A stretch of DNA of 38,431 bases, from contig CAMAGG010000003.1 of the NCBI GenBank assembly GCA_945833805.1, positions 1-38,431 on the forward strand, written 5' to 3'. How positions within the stretch are numbered: position 1 is the stretch's first letter; the number at the start of each line of letters is the position of its first letter. This stretch comes from an uncultured Clostridia bacterium. Its GTDB lineage: Bacteria > Bacillota > Clostridia > Oscillospirales > Ruminococcaceae. The position numbers were made by a program, and so were the translations under genes. Below the pieces are notes generated by a model. That model saw only the letters and a list, made by a program, of their open reading frames with translations, searched no databases and had not been told where the DNA came from. Below are positions 1-35,536 of this stretch, in pieces.

Positions 1-111
1 TATGTTAGAAGAACGAAGTTCTTCAAGGCTGCGTCAGCAGCCTGGCGCGAAGCGGAGAAAACATTTCCGGTGAAATTTGTATCCAAAATACCGAAAATAT
101 TCACAAATATA

Positions 112-140
112 TTGACTAAATGCAGAAAATATTGTATAAT
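112..140 (+). promoter_or_regulatory. sigma-70/SigA-type promoter for the dockerin protein
   Basis: TTGACT (112-117), 17-bp spacer, TATAAT (135-140), 38 bp upstream of the likely ATG at 179. Confidence 0.75.
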
Positions 141-178
141 TATACTATATACTATGTTGTATGTCCGGAGGTATTGGT

Positions 179-3100
179 ATGAAGCTTAAGCAAAGGATTG
201 CGGCGGTTCTTACCGCTTGCGCATTGATGTTCACACTTACTGACCCGTCCGCGCTGGGAGGTATCCTGAATTCGGCAGGAACTGCTTCGGCGGCGGCTGT
301 CGGAAGCATCACTCTGCTGCAAAAGCCGGGGGCTCCGACTGCCGGAATGGCATTCTGGGACGCTACATCTGAATACACAAAAACAGATAACGATACAACT
401 ACCGGTCAGATTTTGGAAAGAACTGTAACATGGTATCTTGACGGAACGGATACCGTGGTCACCGGCAATGCCGGATACAATAAGAAATACCGTGTTGAGA
501 TCAGGTTCAGGATCAACAAATCCAATTATACCTTTTCACAGGACTTCTCAATGCAGTATCACGAGGGAACTTCTTTAAAGGATATTGATTTTGAGCTGGA
601 GGGCGACGATTGGGCTGTCGCAAAAATGAGCTTTGACGCGACCCGTATGCCTAACGCGACCGGAGCGGAATTCATAGCAACTACCACTATCCCTGCCGGA
701 TCAAAGGAGTTCACCTTATCTCCTTCGCTTGCCTGCCATGCTACCGACAGCGATATACTCCGTGCGCTGCCCTCTACCGCGATAATAAGAACCGAGGACG
801 ATTCATTAAACCTGAATTCGACTATCACATGGAAGACCTCGACAGGCGCGTTTGATTTCGTTTCATCAACCTACGACCCCAACGACGTCGAGCAGCAGAC
901 CTTCAAGATCCGCGGTACTGTAAACGTACCCAGCGGCTCACAGGTCGGAAATACAACGTTTTATGACTACCTGTATGTAAACGTAACGGTTCTCGCCGCT
1001 GACGTGCTTCCCAAGCCGACTGCCTCCACTCAGGAGGGTGAATATTTTACCGGAATCACCGTTAAGCTCAGTTCCTCTGAGGACATTTACTACACTATCA
1101 GCAGCAACGACAAAGGTCCCGACCCGCAGGGCGGTGTTGAAAGCGACTCTAACCTAAAGTACAACGGCGGAATTAACCTAGCCGGAGTTGTCGGCTCCAC
1201 AAAGACCTATTACATAAAGGCTATCGCATATAACAAGAACTTCCGGCAGAGCGAGGTCGCAACCTTTGTATATTCCATAACCCTTGAGCCGTCGGAGCTT
1301 ACCAATATCCCCACGGTTCATCTGGACATTGATCCTCCTGTGGGAGGAAAGGTGCTGGATACCACCGCAGAGCTTTCCAGCGACGCAACGGATCTTGAAA
1401 GGGGCGGAATTGCGATCATATCCTCCGTTGCATGGATAGGAACAAATGTCAACGGCAAGGCTGACTATAACACCAGATATTCGATAAGCGTTGAGATCAC
1501 TCCGAAGAATATGTATGCGTTCTTCTCAACTCCGGACGTGTACATCAACGGAATGGAAGCAAAAAGCACCACAAACTCCAGCGGTACTCTCACCATTACC
1601 TATACTTTCCCGGAAAAGACCGAAAAGCTGAAAAGCTTCAAGATTGTTGATCCCAGCTCCACAGTCATGGCGGAAAACGGAACTTCTATAACCAACATCG
1701 GCAAGCTGCTTCCGAATATGGTAGAAATTGAAGCGCCTGTCGGAACTCTGCTTGAGAAAGAGTATCAGGTTACATGGGATCTCAGCACCTCTAACCCCGC
1801 ATACGATCCGAAAATGGCGGAGGCGCAGACCTTTACCCTTACCGGAACGGTCACAATGCCCGATTATATTGAATATACGGCTGGACAGAATACTGCAAAG
1901 GTGACTGTCTATGTCGGTCAGGCGGGAATGCTCACATGGCCTACGGCGTCCCCGGCAGACTCCGCAGAGGGTCAGCGCTCTTTCTATGAGCCGGTAACAG
2001 TTACCCTCAGCTCTGCTCACCCGAATGCAGCAATTTATTACACGATAGGCACTTCTTCAAACATTTCCGCTCCGACGATAAGCGGAGGAAAGGCATATAC
2101 CTCTCCAATTCTGCTGACCGGCGTTCCTGGAGAGATCGTTACCTATTACATCAAGGCGATAGCTACGGCGGCTGGAATGAAGGACAGCCCGGTGAACACC
2201 TTTGTTTACACGCTGGTGATCCCGAAGCAGACGGTGGAGACCCCTACTGCGAACTACTCGTCAGGAACATATAATCAGGCTCTTGAGATCTCTCTTAACA
2301 CAACCACTGTCGGCGCAGATATCTATTACACCACCGACCCGACAGCCAAAAAAGAAGCGTTCAAGCTGTATGACGGAGTATTTAAGCTTGAGGGTATGCC
2401 GAACAGCACAAAGACATACAGTGTAAGGTGTTATGCAAAGGATCCGGAGGGCATAATGAGCGACTCAGAGATCGCGTCCTTCAAATATACAGTAACACTT
2501 CCGAAAAACAAGGCACTTGCGCCGTATCCGAACCTCACCCCCGGAATTTCCTATGAGAAATCTCTGTCCCTGACGCTGAAATGTGATTCTCCGAACACAG
2601 AGATCTATTACACCATTAATTCTTCTCTTGATCCGGATAACGGGATCACAGGAATAAAGTACACCAGCAGTATCAAGCTTACCGAGGACAGTAACAAGAT
2701 CGTCACCTACACGATCAGGACTTATGCGAAATCCCTTGACCTGAATATCGACAACAGTCCTGTGGTAACATACACATATACGATAGGAATTGATTATGGC
2801 GTAAAGTCCATTGAGATCGAACAGCGTCCGCTGAAATATTCTTATTATATAGGCGAGCTGTTGAATGTATCCGGAGGAAAGATCAAGGTCACTTACGTTG
2901 ACGGAACTGTTGAAAGCGTCTACATAGAAGATGAGATGATCGAGGATTTTGACAGCTGGGTAATCGGACAGCAGTCTGTCACCGTAAGATACAAGGGCTG
3001 TATCACCAAGTTCAATATCGTAGTCAGAAAGCGCAGCGATACCACGGACAGCGGAAGCACCACTGACCCTGGAACAGATGGTACCGGAAGCGGTTCGGGT

Positions 3101-4839: not shown

Positions 4840-5680
4840 CGGAACTCCTCTTTTCTATGCTGTCGAGCATTTGGATGTATTTCCCGAGTACAGGCTGGAA
4901 GTGTATGCCGTAGAAACGGCGGTCGTCGGCATTTGCAGTGTAGTCCACAGCCTCAAATGTAAACCTTGTCGCGATCTCCAACGCCTGCGCATAGTCAGCG
5001 TCGCGAAGTACCGCGCCCAGAAGCGCGGAGGCGAACACATCACCCGTTCCTGAGCAGGCTACGTCCCGTTTCGGGGTAAGGCACTCGGTGAATTTTCCGT
5101 CACAGCAGCCCACTGCGCCTAGCTTCCCCTTTTCGGAAAAACCGGTGATGACTGCGAATTTCACTCCCATATTGCACAGCTCTGTAAGCATTTCCTTTAC
5201 CTCGTGGAGAGTGGGACAGGGATTGAAGCTGCGTCCGGTGAGCAGGCAGGCTTCGGTGATATTAGGAGTGATCACATCGGCGCAGGATATGAATTTCCGC
5301 ATATGCTCCGGGTAATCATCGGTAAGCGCAGCGTACATCTTGCCGTTGTCGCCCATTACCGGGTCGATGAATACCGGAGCGCCGGGCTTTCTGAACTGCT
5401 CAATGAATTTGCGGATAAGATCTATCTGCTCTACGGAGGCAATATAACCGGTGTATATCCCATCAAAATCAATATGCTCCCGTTTAAGCTGTTCGCTGAT
5501 CGGAGTCAGCTCTTGTGTGAGGTCTACGCTGTAAAAGGTGGGGAAGCCGGTGTGGTTTGACAGCAGCGCCGTGGGTATTCCGCAGCACTCTACTCCGGCG
5601 GCGGACAGCACGGGTATCGCCGCTGTCAGCGAACAGCTTCCTACGCAGGAAAAATCCTGTATTGTAACAATTCTTTTCAT
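4832..5680 (-). CDS. pdxY: pyridoxamine/pyridoxal kinase
   Basis: 282 aa; QDFSCVGSCSLTAAIPVLSAAGVECCGIPTALLSNHTGFP N-terminus and VACSGTGDVFASALLGAVLR ribokinase-like active-site motif. Confidence 0.9.
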   Translation of the reverse strand: MKRIVTIQDFSCVGSCSLTAAIPVLSAAGVECCGIPTALLSNHTGFPTFYSVDLTQELTPISEQLKREHIDFDGIYTGYIASVEQIDLIRKFIEQFRKPGAPVFIDPVMGDNGKMYAALTDDYPEHMRKFISCADVITPNITEACLLTGRSFNPCPTLHEVKEMLTELCNMGVKFAVITGFSEKGKLGAVGCCDGKFTECLTPKRDVACSGTGDVFASALLGAVLRDADYAQALEIATRFTFEAVDYTANADDRRFYGIHFQPVLGKYIQMLDSIEKRSSDG

Positions 5681-5693
5681 TCTATCAGCTCTG

Positions 5694-8552
5694 TTATTTC
5701 TTATTTTTTTTGTATTCCGGAAGCCATTTGCACAGCTCGGAAGTGAGCGAGGTTATTTCCAGCGGTTTTGAAACATGACCGTTCATTCCGTGTTCCTTGC
5801 AGGTTTTTACGTCCTCGATGAACGCATTGGCAGTCATGGCGATTATCGGTATTTCTGACGCGTCCGGGCGGTCAAGGTTACGGATTTTTTTCGCCGCCTG
5901 ATTTCCGTCCAACACCGGCATTTGTATATCCATAAATATCAGACTGTAATAACCAGGTGGAGAGCTTTGGAACATCTCGACCGCCTCTGCTCCGTCGTGA
6001 GCAATTTCGGTGCGGATATTTGCTTCCGCAAGGAATTCCGCAGCTATTTCGGCATTGAAATCCAGATCCTCTGCCAGCAGCACGCGTTTTCCTCCGAAAT
6101 CAAAGTCGGACATACGCACCTTGCGCGGTTCCTCCATTGATATCCCACCGATGTAACTTCCGGTAGCCGCGCCTTTTTTCAGGCATACGGTTATGCCGAA
6201 TTCCGAGCCTTTGCCCGGCGTGCTTTTTATCGAGATATCGCCGTTCATCATTCGTGCGATGTTCAGAGAGATAGTCATACCTAGTCCTGTTCCCTGAATT
6301 CCGCTTATTCTCCTGTCGTCAGCCCGCACGAACGGGTCGTAGATGTGCTCGATGAATTCCGGCTTCATGCCTATTCCGTTGTCCTCGACCTTAAAGAAAT
6401 ACCGGCATACTCCCTGATGATCCGGCTCGATCTCTTTCGCGGTGAAATGGATCTCGCCGCAGTCGGGGGTGTATTTTATCGCATTTCCGAGGATATTGGT
6501 AAGCAGCTGGCGCAGCTTTGTCTGATCGCCGATAACGCTGGAATTCATGCTTGTTGAGATATCCACGACAAGCGTATGGCGTTTTTTGTCGGCAAGCGGA
6601 CGTATCATCTTGAGAGTTTCTTCAAGGAACAGATTAAGGTCAAACGGCTCGCTTGCAAGCACGGTTTTCCCGCTCTCTATCGCCGACAGGTCAAGCACAT
6701 TGTTGACGATCTCGAGCAGATGCCGTCCAGATGCTTCGATCTTGTCAAGGCAGTCCAGAACGCGGCTTGGCTCGTTGATATGCTCCTGCGCGATCGCTGC
6801 CATTCCGAGAATGGAGTTCAGCGGGGTGCGGATATCATGGCTCATCTGGCTCATGAACAGGGTCTTGGCGGAGTTCGCGTGCTGCGCCTGTGTGAAAGCG
6901 TCCCGCAGCGCCTGTTCAACTCTTGTTTTCTGATTATGCTCCTCGGAGATGTTCCGGACGTAGGTAAGACCCCAGATGTCCCCGGTTTCAAGATCCTGAG
7001 TCAGAATGACTGCTTCGCGGAAGTAACCTTTTCTGCCTTCGATCTCAAACTCGTACTCTGTGTCGAAGCTCCGGCGGTGGCTGTTGTACATATCCGCAAG
7101 GGTTTCGGTGCAGAAGGTCTTGCGGAAGGTTTCCGCAGCTGCTTTATCAGTGAAAAAAGTGGCTTTCTTCGCAATATATTTATTATAGGAGCAGGGAACG
7201 GAAAGTCCTAGCATAGGAAGCAGAGGATTAATGCCGTCCTGCTCGATTATTTCATCGTATATCGTGTCTTTTGTTATATTGTAGGTATAAACTGCGATAG
7301 CGTTTGATAGTATCGCCTGACGGTACTGGCTTTCAGCGCGGAGCGCTCTTTCAAGACGCTGCTGATAGCGCAGCTCCTTGAGCTTTTCAGCGGTAATGGG
7401 CTGAACTGTGAGTATTGCGGTTATGGGATCTCCGTTTTCGTCCGCCGATGACATAAACGCCTGAATTCTCAGCCATTCGGAATGCTCGCCGCTGTGCTGG
7501 CATATCTCGCATTCTATCACCTTTTCGCCGGACTTAAAACGCTTTAACATATTTCCGACGCTGAAATTATAAAGCACGGCGTTCTTGTCTTCTTCGCTGT
7601 ATTCATAATTGTTTAAGAATTTATGAATAGCGTCGCTGTAAAAGCCTGTATCGCCAAAATTTTCACCGCTGTGCTCCCTGTTGTCAAAGGAGGAATAGTA
7701 GGTGTTGTTTTTCAGGTTGATAAGATCAAGAATAAGGTAGGGAACTGACAGACCGTTGATAAGCTGATTGCGAAGCTCCTCAATATACACTGTCCGGTGG
7801 TCTGCCTCCAGCTTTCGCAGCACGATGAATTCTGTATATTTACCGCCTATGGGCTGTTTCATCTTCACACAGCGCAGATTAAGCCACGGGCATTTATCAT
7901 CGTGAATAAAACGGAATTCGCCGTATACCTCGTCAAGACTGCCGAAGCTTTCCAGCAGCTTTGTGCGGGACAGAAGCTCGCTTAGCCGTGCGCGGTCGTC
8001 CGGGTGGACATGATCGAGCAGATCCGAGCACCACTCGTCGAAATTGCATTCGCAGCCGGCGGTGGAGCTGGTGTTGAACGTGTCGTTCAGAGTGAGCATA
8101 CGGTTATGGGAAAGATCTGTCAGAGCGCAGAAATTAAAACTCTGGAGCAATTTTTCCGCAAAGAGCCGCGTCAGCAGTTTTACCTCCGGATCAAAATCGA
8201 CAAGCGGCGCATTGCCCTCCGACACTCCCTTGAAAATGCCGTATATAATGCTGGAGCCGCCCTCTTTTTTTGCGAGCATACCTGAGCTGCACGCATTGAT
8301 CATGCCTTTGTCCCTGTACCGCCAGCGGTATCTTACCTCTGCCAGTATATTGTGCATGGTGGTTTCTATTGCTTCCTTTATCAGTGGGAGATCGTCCGGG
8401 TGTATACCCTCTACCCACTTCAGATAGTTCCCCTCAGGGTCAGAATTGTCCGGTATGTCCATGATCTTCAGAAAATCATCGTCGAGAAAAAGCTGGTGGG
8501 GGCAGCCCCCGCGGATTACCATTCTGAAAGTTCCTGTCAATATCGAGTCCAT
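5694..8552 (-). CDS. hybrid sensor histidine kinase/response regulator with N-terminal PAS-like domains, HisKA, HATPase_c and REC
   Basis: 952 aa; FMSQMSHDIRTPLNSILGM H-box; NAIKYTP N-box; DNGIGM and GTGLGMTI G-boxes; receiver MDIQMPVLDGNQAAKKIR; no clear transmembrane segments. Confidence 0.93.
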   Translation of the reverse strand: MDSILTGTFRMVIRGGCPHQLFLDDDFLKIMDIPDNSDPEGNYLKWVEGIHPDDLPLIKEAIETTMHNILAEVRYRWRYRDKGMINACSSGMLAKKEGGSSIIYGIFKGVSEGNAPLVDFDPEVKLLTRLFAEKLLQSFNFCALTDLSHNRMLTLNDTFNTSSTAGCECNFDEWCSDLLDHVHPDDRARLSELLSRTKLLESFGSLDEVYGEFRFIHDDKCPWLNLRCVKMKQPIGGKYTEFIVLRKLEADHRTVYIEELRNQLINGLSVPYLILDLINLKNNTYYSSFDNREHSGENFGDTGFYSDAIHKFLNNYEYSEEDKNAVLYNFSVGNMLKRFKSGEKVIECEICQHSGEHSEWLRIQAFMSSADENGDPITAILTVQPITAEKLKELRYQQRLERALRAESQYRQAILSNAIAVYTYNITKDTIYDEIIEQDGINPLLPMLGLSVPCSYNKYIAKKATFFTDKAAAETFRKTFCTETLADMYNSHRRSFDTEYEFEIEGRKGYFREAVILTQDLETGDIWGLTYVRNISEEHNQKTRVEQALRDAFTQAQHANSAKTLFMSQMSHDIRTPLNSILGMAAIAQEHINEPSRVLDCLDKIEASGRHLLEIVNNVLDLSAIESGKTVLASEPFDLNLFLEETLKMIRPLADKKRHTLVVDISTSMNSSVIGDQTKLRQLLTNILGNAIKYTPDCGEIHFTAKEIEPDHQGVCRYFFKVEDNGIGMKPEFIEHIYDPFVRADDRRISGIQGTGLGMTISLNIARMMNGDISIKSTPGKGSEFGITVCLKKGAATGSYIGGISMEEPRKVRMSDFDFGGKRVLLAEDLDFNAEIAAEFLAEANIRTEIAHDGAEAVEMFQSSPPGYYSLIFMDIQMPVLDGNQAAKKIRNLDRPDASEIPIIAMTANAFIEDVKTCKEHGMNGHVSKPLEITSLTSELCKWLPEYKKNKK

Positions 8553-33012: not shown

Positions 33013-33045
33013 TCGGGCTGATTTTCGGGTCAGCCCGACTTTTTT
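33013..33045 (+). terminator. intrinsic terminator downstream of the transketolase genes
   Basis: 9-bp stem tcgggctga / tcagcccga, 8-nt loop, then cTTTTTT. Confidence 0.9.
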
Positions 33046-33054
33046 ATGTCTCAA

Positions 33055-33086
33055 TGTAACCTTTTATGAACTCAGCCTGTTATATT
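33055..33086 (+). promoter_or_regulatory. candidate ECF-type promoter upstream of the membrane regulator
   Basis: TGTAACC (-35-like, with an AAC core) and GTTATATT (-10-like) about 18 bp downstream; no TTGACA-like -35 at SigA spacing. Confidence 0.35.
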
Positions 33087-33126: not shown

Positions 33127-34908
33127 ATGAATTCACAGATATGGAAAACCATACTTGACGACCTTGGCGAGGATATAGTGAACTCCGCGGCGGAGCGGTT
33201 CGGAAAGGAGGAATTCTCCGGCGATGACCCGGCGAACTACCCGGCTGACAGAAGCCCCGTTGAATACCGTTTCACGGAGAAAAAAATCTCGAAACGCATA
33301 GGTCTAGCTATCGGGATAGGATCTGCGGCGGTGGTCGCTTTAGGTGTCGGAATAGCGGCTTATGTCAGGACAACGACCCTAGATGATATAGTACTCCCTA
33401 ATTCCGGGGCAGTCAGCAGCGATCCGTCAGCAACCATATCCTCTACATACGACAGCCAAGTGGAATACATTGAATCTAATGACGAGCCGAGCGTAGAAGA
33501 AATTATTGAGTTGAAATACGATGGATTTGACCTTGAACTGTTTGAGGAGTATTTCTATGGCTCGTGGGTAGACGACGGCGGCTGGTCAATGCAGCTCGGC
33601 TATTCGCCGAATGAGTTTTTCGGTTACAGCTCTGGGAGAATAGTTGCAGGAATGGTCAGGGATTTCATGGGCTGTTATATGATTCAGCAAACAAACGATG
33701 GCTATGATATGCTGTTTGTGCCGCAGTCCGAACAGGATAAGCTGTATTATTTCTATAACGTTACGCTGACGGACGATGGTGGATTGCCAGAGGATTTCTG
33801 GACGTCAGATCATGAATACACCGCAATTTACACCCGCGGGGAAGCTGTGTCCGAGGGGAATTCGCTGGGCTATTTCGGAGTTGAAAAGCTAGCCTATGAA
33901 ATGGGCGTAACTTCGGATTGGCTGCTTACGCAGGACATTCAGTTCGAGGGCGGCGAAGCGGAACTATGGACAAGAAGCGGAGCGGAATTCCCGGACTGGG
34001 AAAACATTATCCTGCTCGACCAGAGCGATAACAGCGTGACATTGTGTATGGCTTATGTTTCGGCGGATAATACCGATGACAGGAAGTACTTTGATGTCAC
34101 ATTCGAGCGGGATAACAGCGGCTCTTGGGAAATGACAACGGTTCAGTCGGGAAAGCTTTATTTCGGTGATGCTGAGCTTTACAGCGGGCTTACCAAAGAG
34201 GGCTTTCAGCTTTTCAAGCAGCATTTCTCCGACTGGTGGTACAGCGAAACCGATGAGTACCCGTCAATTGTCCTGATTTATAAAGATGATGTCTTTACAC
34301 CGACTGAACCCTGCTCCGGAATAGCAGAAGCCGCGGGCGGCTGGGCTATGCGTCAGGAATCTGACGAGGGAAGAATATACTATATTCCGGAAAATGACGC
34401 TCAGCATATGTATCTATACATTCCGGACGAAAATGGTTTTGCCAAGCGTGATGAATATGCGGCAGTATACGAACGCTCCGGCGGCGCTATGGGCTATGCC
34501 GGCAGCGTTCGGGTTTCGTGGCTGGGTCTGGAGCGCTATAAATTCATGCACGACTACAACCCGGACGGCGACAGCCTTGCTTCGGCGATAGAGCGGGCGC
34601 TCACGCAGGATATAGAAATAGGCGGTTCTGCTGCAAACTATACCGCCGACATGGAGGGCTGGGACGGCTATCGTATCTCTGAGCAGTCCGAAAGCCTTGT
34701 GCTGTTCTCCTATCAGCTTTTTAACGCTATTGGAGAAAGCTGCTGGGTAACTCAGGAGCTTGTGAAGAATGGCGCAGACTGGACTCTGGGCGAGATCACC
34801 GAGCGCGAACTCACCAACGATGACATTGTGCGGGAAGAGGGCTTTGTGCCGATAACATGGTCTGATGATTTCCCGTTAGAAAGCGAGGTCGAAGTTGATG
34901 GAAGATAA
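33127..34908 (+). CDS. single-pass membrane protein with large ectodomain; putative anti-sigma/sigma regulator
   Basis: 593 aa; about 56-aa N-terminal cytoplasmic region, TM IGLAIGIGSAAVVALGVGIAAYV, about 500-aa ectodomain; overlaps the sigma gene by about 10 nt. Confidence 0.65.
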   Translation: MNSQIWKTILDDLGEDIVNSAAERFGKEEFSGDDPANYPADRSPVEYRFTEKKISKRIGLAIGIGSAAVVALGVGIAAYVRTTTLDDIVLPNSGAVSSDPSATISSTYDSQVEYIESNDEPSVEEIIELKYDGFDLELFEEYFYGSWVDDGGWSMQLGYSPNEFFGYSSGRIVAGMVRDFMGCYMIQQTNDGYDMLFVPQSEQDKLYYFYNVTLTDDGGLPEDFWTSDHEYTAIYTRGEAVSEGNSLGYFGVEKLAYEMGVTSDWLLTQDIQFEGGEAELWTRSGAEFPDWENIILLDQSDNSVTLCMAYVSADNTDDRKYFDVTFERDNSGSWEMTTVQSGKLYFGDAELYSGLTKEGFQLFKQHFSDWWYSETDEYPSIVLIYKDDVFTPTEPCSGIAEAAGGWAMRQESDEGRIYYIPENDAQHMYLYIPDENGFAKRDEYAAVYERSGGAMGYAGSVRVSWLGLERYKFMHDYNPDGDSLASAIERALTQDIEIGGSAANYTADMEGWDGYRISEQSESLVLFSYQLFNAIGESCWVTQELVKNGADWTLGEITERELTNDDIVREEGFVPITWSDDFPLESEVEVDGR

Positions 34909-35446
34909 CCAGATAATCGAGTTGTACTTCCAGCGTGACGAGCAGGCTATCGCAGAAACCCAGAGCAAATACGGCAGGCTGTGCGGGAAGATAGCCGGGG
35001 GAATTCTCACCCGCCCTGAGGACGCAGAGGAAGCGGTGAGCAGCAGTTACATAAAGCTGTGGAATGCGATACCGCCGAAGCGCCCGACTTCGCTGTGCGG
35101 CTATCTGTGCGCAATAGTCCGGAACACGGCGCTGAACCTGTACGACAACCTGCGGCGGCGTTCCTGCGAGGAGCTTTACGGAGAGCTTGCGGAGGTTATT
35201 CCAGACAGTGTGAGCGTTGACCAGCAGCTTGACAGCCGGGAGATATCCGACAGCCTTAACCGTTTCCTGCGGGGCTGCAATAAGAAGAGCCGGGATATTT
35301 TCACCGGGCGGTATTACTTCAATATGTCAGTGAGGGATATCGCCGAGGGCATGGGAATGACCGAAACTGCGGTAAAGACACGGCTTTCCCGCACCCGCGC
35401 CGAGCTGAAAAAATATCTCGTCAGCAGCGGGGTCTTTACAGATTAA
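34898..35446 (+). CDS. ECF-type sigma-70 family RNA polymerase sigma factor
   Basis: 183 aa by track (TTG 34895; ATG 34898 equally possible); region 2 RPEDAEEAVSSSYIKLWNAIP, region 4 FNMSVRDIAEGMGMTETAVKTRLSRTRAELKKYL. Confidence 0.9.
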   Translation: MEDNQIIELYFQRDEQAIAETQSKYGRLCGKIAGGILTRPEDAEEAVSSSYIKLWNAIPPKRPTSLCGYLCAIVRNTALNLYDNLRRRSCEELYGELAEVIPDSVSVDQQLDSREISDSLNRFLRGCNKKSRDIFTGRYYFNMSVRDIAEGMGMTETAVKTRLSRTRAELKKYLVSSGVFTD

Positions 35447-35451
35447 TTTAT

Positions 35452-35485
35452 TAGCTCCTGTGTTTTGCGCAGGAGCTATTATTTT
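35452..35485 (+). terminator. intrinsic terminator downstream of the sigma gene
   Basis: 9-bp stem tagctcctg / caggagcta followed by ttatttt. Confidence 0.8.
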
Positions 35486-35507: not shown

Positions 35508-35536
35508 TTGACAAAGCAACTGAAAAGAGGTATAAT
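35508..35536 (+). promoter_or_regulatory. SigA-type promoter for galE
   Basis: TTGACA (35508-35513), 17 bp, TATAAT (35531-35536): full consensus. Confidence 0.9.

What the first reader, a model, noticed from the sequence alone, without database searches (positions are those of the whole stretch)
33127..35446. Large-ectodomain membrane regulator encoded upstream of, and overlapping, an ECF sigma factor
The first ORF has a short cytoplasmic N-terminus, one TM segment and an ectodomain of about 500 aa. Its end overlaps the sigma ORF, suggesting translational coupling. The cytoplasmic segment (MNSQIWKTILDDLGEDIVNSAAERFGKEEF...) has no HxxxCxxC zinc anti-sigma motif. Established knowledge: ECF sigma genes often pair with membrane anti-sigma factors, usually encoded downstream of the sigma gene; here the order is reversed. 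Inference: this is a non-canonical sigma/anti-sigma envelope or nutrient sensor with an unrecognised ligand.
Basis: partly seen in the sequence, partly recalled or inferred. Interest (0 to 1): 0.62.

Follow-up and report, generated by a model that had tools for sequence, protein, structure and literature searches.

The report
Sigma-factor operon with swapped gene order
A gut bacterium carries a two-gene switch, a membrane receptor and the transcription factor it probably holds back, that belongs to a large and mostly undescribed family, but here the two genes sit in the opposite order from nearly all their relatives.

Summary
ORF1 (33127-34908) has a 57-aa cytoplasmic N-terminus without Cys or His, one TM segment and a 513-aa ectodomain. 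It overlaps an ECF sigma gene (34898-35446) by 11 nt. The pair forms its own transcription unit: terminator, ECF-type promoter TGTAACCTTT-N14-GTTATA at 33055, ORF1, sigma, terminator.

The sigma belongs to a large Clostridial family (37 of 43 genomes of the genus). In 90 of 96 loci sigma comes first, usually with a 4-nt overlap, and the second gene encodes a single-TM protein with a shared N-terminal motif (LxxAIxxIDDxxIxEA). Only four orthologues, all just after the transketolase genes, put the membrane gene first. They form one clade nested among sigma-first members. The same promoter precedes ORF1 in these four and precedes sigma in seven close sigma-first relatives.

The ectodomain is two copies of a roughly 210-aa module with no Pfam or PDB match. 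The module also occurs in sigma-first partners, in lipoproteins and next to an M56/BlaR1-type peptidase. Exact promoter matches in a sister species precede lipoprotein genes.

Most likely this is a membrane anti-sigma/ECF pair sensing an extracellular signal. The order is a derived swap, not a new mechanism. Inhibition, ligand and release are inferred.

The parts
33013..33038 (+). Terminator-like hairpin after the transketolase gene, upstream boundary of the unit
   Evidence: 11-bp stem followed by T tract
33055..33084 (+). ECF-type promoter TGTAACCTTT-N14-GTTATA, 72 bp before the ORF1 ATG
   Evidence: Only match in the window and only exact match in the own genome. Same place in 3 orthologues; -35 box 100%, -10 box 81%, spacer 48% mean pairwise identity
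33127..34908 (+). ORF1, 593-aa single-TM membrane protein, predicted anti-sigma/receptor
   Evidence: ORF and translation; orthologues L034, L035, L036
33127..33204 (+). Conserved N-terminal motif (aa 1-26), predicted as two short helices 3-12 and 15-26; proposed sigma-binding element
   Evidence: Shared with 90 sigma-first partners; helices from AF2 at low confidence
33298..33363 (+). Transmembrane segment, aa about 58-79
   Evidence: Hydropathy
33511..34146 (+). Ectodomain module copy 1 (aa about 129-340)
   Evidence: hhalign of copy 1 against copy 2 E 1.8e-9; HMM; AF2 pLDDT 87.8, pTM 0.85
34183..34800 (+). Ectodomain module copy 2 (aa about 353-558)
   Evidence: As above
34898..35446 (+). 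ECF sigma factor, 182 aa (ATG 34898); sigma2 aa 24-87, sigma4 aa 129-170
   Evidence: Pfam and NCBIfam TIGR02937; tree
35452..35478 (+). Terminator-like hairpin closing the unit
   Evidence: 12-bp stem followed by a T-rich tail

Best explanation
ORF1 and the sigma gene are one autoregulated signalling unit of a Clostridial ECF sigma/membrane-regulator family. The short N-terminal helical motif of ORF1 binds and holds the sigma at the membrane, and the two-module ectodomain senses an extracellular signal. On signal the sigma is freed, directs RNA polymerase to TGTAACCTTT-N14-GTYWTA promoters, raises its own operon and, in relatives, surface lipoproteins. The gene order, with the regulator first, is a lineage-specific swap that kept the promoter at the head of the operon. 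Shown by sequence: pairing, common N-terminus, promoter conservation, duplication in the ectodomain and the single origin of the swap. Inferred: binding, inhibition rather than activation, sensing, and release (probably by regulated proteolysis).
For: Domains. 90 of 96 sigma loci of the family are followed directly by a single-TM protein with the shared N-terminal motif, mostly with ATGA overlap. N-terminal motif distances track sigma distances (Mantel r 0.58, null maximum 0.08), and the closest N-termini to ORF1 outside the four swapped operons are mainly partners from the same sigma clade. The four regulator-first loci form one clade (99/94) nested in a mostly sigma-first clade (100/100), one change of order. 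The promoter heads the operon in both orders. Exact sites: 1 in the own genome and 4 in G014, against about 0.005-0.007 expected per genome; the three non-operon sites in G014 and one in G030 precede lipoprotein genes. The ectodomain module recurs in lipoproteins, in another sigma partner and next to an M56 sensor peptidase.
Against: ORF1 alone is a weak match to the family N-terminal HMM (E 0.015, beaten by 1 of 1000 shuffles of itself, though orthologue L036 scores 1.3e-5). The Mantel correlation falls to 0.12 among distant pairs, so it shows co-inheritance, not contact. In the window's own genome the only exact promoter is its own, so the regulon there is not shown.
Confidence: 0.8

Rival explanations
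1. ORF1 is a positive regulator: its N-terminus is needed for sigma folding, stability or activity, and the sigma is inactive without it.
For: Sequence alone cannot tell an inhibitor from an activator. Regulator-first order would supply the regulator before the sigma.
Against: Comparable sigma/single-TM partner systems with extracellular sensors studied so far, such as SigV/RsiV (PMC4183432) and SigI/RsgI (PMC12203970), are inhibitory. The sigma-first homologues have the order typical of anti-sigmas.
Confidence: 0.1
2. The swap has functional meaning: with the regulator translated first and the sigma start inside its end, sigma synthesis is coupled to receptor synthesis, giving tighter inhibition or a sharper threshold than in sigma-first operons. 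(Compatible with the best explanation; it adds a purpose to the order.)
For: Overlap of 11 to 23 nt in three of four orthologues, and order kept in four species at one locus.
Against: L035 has a 35-nt gap, so coupling is not conserved. A neutral origin, such as tandem duplication followed by differential loss, explains the order equally well.
Confidence: 0.3
3. The two genes are only neighbours, and ORF1 is an unrelated surface protein not acting on this sigma.
For: None beyond the lack of a known anti-sigma domain.
Against: Conserved pairing through a change of order, shared N-terminal motif, common promoter and operon boundaries.
Confidence: 0.03

Closest known systems
Sigma-first ECF/single-TM partner pairs of the same family (e.g. 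L038, L097, L086, and own-genome paralogues on C9, C14, C73, C210)
   Same: Homologous sigma, N-terminal motif, TM; in the nearest clade the same promoter and the same ectodomain module
   Different: Gene order; number of module copies or a different ectodomain (serpin, WG repeats, DUF4349)
SigI/RsgI of Clostridium thermocellum (PMC4711584, PMC12203970)
   Same: Works alike: many paralogous pairs, shared cytoplasmic N-terminus, varied extracellular sensor domains
   Different: Different sigma group; no match to a known anti-sigma Pfam family in ORF1; no carbohydrate-binding domains found
SigV/RsiV of Bacillus subtilis (PMC4183432)
   Same: ECF sigma with single-TM regulator and extracellular receptor domain
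   Different: Sigma-first in the known system (own knowledge); no match to the RsiV ectodomain families in Pfam
Class II anti-sigma CnrY (PMC7406223)
   Same: Short, non-zinc, two-helix cytoplasmic element
   Different: No sequence match found; the fold of the element here is only a low-confidence prediction
NepR-EcfG and SpoIIAB-SigF operons (own knowledge)
   Same: Anti-sigma gene lies before the sigma gene, so that order has precedent
   Different: Soluble partner-switch regulators, not membrane receptors

Membership tests
ECF (group IV) sigma factors | sigma2 and sigma4 only, short linker | tested here: met
   Sigma70_r2 24-87, Sigma70_r4_2 129-170, 182 aa, TIGR02937 75.5 bits over a cut-off of 42.9
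ECF (group IV) sigma factors | Autoregulated operon with an ECF-type promoter (common, not universal) | tested here: inconclusive
   Sequence supports it: conserved TGTAACCTTT-N14-GTYWTA at the operon head in both gene orders; transcription by this sigma not tested
Zinc anti-sigma (ZAS) | HxxxCxxC in the cytoplasmic domain | tested here: not met
   No Cys or His in ORF1 residues 1-57; 0 of 90 partners
RsgI, FecR, DUF4179 and other Pfam/NCBIfam anti-sigma families | Match to the family profile | tested here: not met
   No Pfam or NCBIfam anti-sigma match for ORF1
Class II anti-sigma (CnrY type) | Two helices wrapping sigma2 and sigma4 | tested here: inconclusive
   Two short helices predicted at pLDDT about 50; binding not testable here
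Clostridial sigma/single-TM partner family found here | Homologous sigma adjacent to a single-TM protein with the N-terminal motif | tested here: met
Clostridial sigma/single-TM partner family found here | Sigma gene first (usual order, not held to define the family) | tested here: not met
   Regulator first in the window and 3 orthologues only
M56/BlaR1 sensor peptidases | M56 peptidase domain | tested here: not met
   ORF1 shares only the extracellular module with L031

The most novel reading that the evidence does not exclude
The short N-terminal motif defines an undescribed class of non-zinc anti-sigma factors, used in many paralogous ECF pairs in gut Clostridia (up to 31 sigma-family matches in one genome), each with an exchangeable extracellular sensor. 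These include the new duplicated module here and a serpin in the same genome, so that the family forms a broad surface-sensing repertoire.
Probability: 0.5. Interest if true: 0.65.

Novelty: new variant of a known kind. Interest (0 to 1): 0.45.

Why it matters
If right, one short motif marks a large set of unannotated anti-sigma receptors in gut Clostridia. The promoter pattern gives each a testable regulon, and the swapped operon is a natural experiment on whether the order of sigma and anti-sigma genes matters. The extracellular module links sigma partners, lipoproteins and an M56 sensor, so finding its ligand in one would inform the others.

Tried and rejected
PDB sequence hits of the ORF1 profile to viral fusion protein F0/fibritin cover the TM and low-complexity stretch and are taken as chance. 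Fold searches of the whole model (model pLDDT 60.7) and of one module (pLDDT 87.8) gave nothing at E<=0.001 and TM-scores near 0.1-0.2; weak lipid-binding beta-barrel (FABP) hits and the F-x-G-x-W start resemble lipocalins, but this is only a lead. A one-mismatch promoter site on G000:C126 before a glycoside-hydrolase-like gene is expected by chance about once in four genomes (own estimate) and is not claimed as a target. A looser promoter pattern is not enriched in the own genome (2 matches, control 6). The N-terminus has no relative among solved structures. The paper with the current ECF classification is not held, so the ECF group number was not assigned and prior description of this family cannot be excluded. 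One row of alignment A5 (L050) was read in a wrong frame; A5 was not used.

Full report
What is there. ORF1 runs 33127-34908 and the sigma ORF ends at 35446, with ATG 34898 giving an 11-nt overlap. ORF1 has 57 cytoplasmic residues without Cys or His, one TM segment and about 513 residues outside. It has no Pfam or NCBIfam family; the sigma is a two-domain ECF sigma. Terminator-like hairpins lie at 33013-33038 and 35452-35478, and the next gene, a galE-like epimerase, has its own perfect sigma-70-type promoter at 35508-35536, so the pair looks like a separate transcription unit.

Relatives. The own genome holds four further sigma paralogues at 37-47% identity. In all four the sigma comes first and a single-TM protein follows. 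In the genus, 37 of 43 genomes have members of this sigma family, up to 31 in one genome. I read the context of 96 distinct loci: 90 are sigma-first with a single-TM partner, mostly with an ATGA overlap, 4 are regulator-first, and 2 run off a contig. The loci from other families found by a public genome scan are all sigma-first where readable. The four regulator-first loci (window, L034, L035, L036) all follow the transketolase genes, while the gene downstream differs.

Origin of the order. In a maximum-likelihood tree of the 96 sigmas the four regulator-first rows form one clade (99/94) inside a clade of 17 (100/100) whose other members are sigma-first; one change suffices. The closest N-termini to that of ORF1, outside the four, come mainly from partners in that clade, so sigma and partner stayed together through the swap. 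Tandem duplication with loss of the outer copies is a likely route (inference); no remnant was seen in the short flanking gaps.

Promoter. Upstream of ORF1 lies TGTAACCTTT-N14-GTTATA (33055-33084), absent elsewhere in the window. All three orthologues have it 67-71 bp before ORF1, with the -35 box unchanged and the spacer at 48% mean identity. Seven sigma-first relatives carry it 49-54 bp before the sigma (two of them with a spacer shorter by one); no similar site lies in the last 250 nt of ORF1. A search over 16 genomes found one exact site in the own genome, the operon itself, and four in G014; the other three G014 sites and one in G030 precede genes for lipoproteins without a Pfam family. 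About 0.005-0.007 exact sites are expected per genome by chance under equal base use. That this sigma reads the sites is inferred; another ECF in the genus appears to use a near-identical TGCAACCTTT motif.

N-terminus. Ninety partners share a motif of about 20 residues, roughly [LIFW]xx[AI][ILV]xx[ILV][DS][DE]x[YFLI][IV]xEA, before a basic stretch and the TM; cytoplasmic length has a median of 41 and none has a zinc motif. The window protein matches weakly (E 0.015; 1 of 1000 shuffles of it does better), its orthologues L036 and L034 better (1.3e-5, 4.7e-4). AF2 gives two short helices at low confidence. By size and lack of zinc it resembles class II anti-sigmas as described in PMC7406223, but no relation was shown.

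Ectodomain. The two halves align by profile (E 1.8e-9). The module occurs four times in L038, twice in L097 and in L086, L087, L088 and L090, in a further sigma partner L215, in lipoproteins L213, L217, L218 and L219, and downstream of an M56 peptidase frame in L031. It is rare outside the genus: 5 of 394 genomes of the order, the own genome included. One module folds well in AF2 (pLDDT 87.8, pTM 0.85) but has no match among solved structures at E<=0.001.

Comparison. The design, many paralogous pairs with one cytoplasmic N-terminus and varied outer domains, works like SigI/RsgI of Clostridium thermocellum (PMC4711584, PMC12203970), but ORF1 matches no RsgI or other anti-sigma profile, so it is not filed there. 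Partners in this family carry serpin, WG-repeat or DUF4349 ectodomains.

Conclusion. The pair is best read as a membrane anti-sigma and its ECF sigma. What appears new is the family's motif, its exchangeable ectodomains and the duplicated module; whether published ECF classifications already list the group could not be checked. Interaction, inhibition, ligand and release remain inferences.

Noticed in passing
L014 74-1495 (-), own genome contig C14; also L052 5549-7075: A sigma partner of the same family has a complete serpin as its ectodomain (PF00079, E 2e-66), suggesting a receptor that may sense proteases.
   Followed up: partly
Own genome C7:8124-8153, C46:11361, C141:4268, C154:5032; many genus genomes: TGCAACCTTT-N14-GT[AT]TTA sites recur; one heads another ECF sigma gene, others precede secreted or lipoprotein genes. 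Likely the regulon of that other sigma.
   Followed up: partly
L031 about 1-2109 (+): An M56 peptidase frame and the module-bearing frame are in the same reading frame, split by a single stop codon; broken gene, error or two genes not resolved.
   Followed up: no
L038 1220-5314 (+), residues 1212-1361: A 1365-aa sigma partner with four modules ends in a stretch resembling the IseA DL-endopeptidase inhibitor (PF16800, just below cut-off).
   Followed up: no
Own genome C126, C193, C202: The identical 30-mer AGTAACATTTCATTTGTAGCATCTGTTATA occurs three times, probably part of a repeated element.
   Followed up: no
L035 about 5550-5770: An inverted repeat (actaataaccatttaaac ... gtttaaacggttattagt) follows the sigma gene, possibly a small mobile element.
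   Followed up: no
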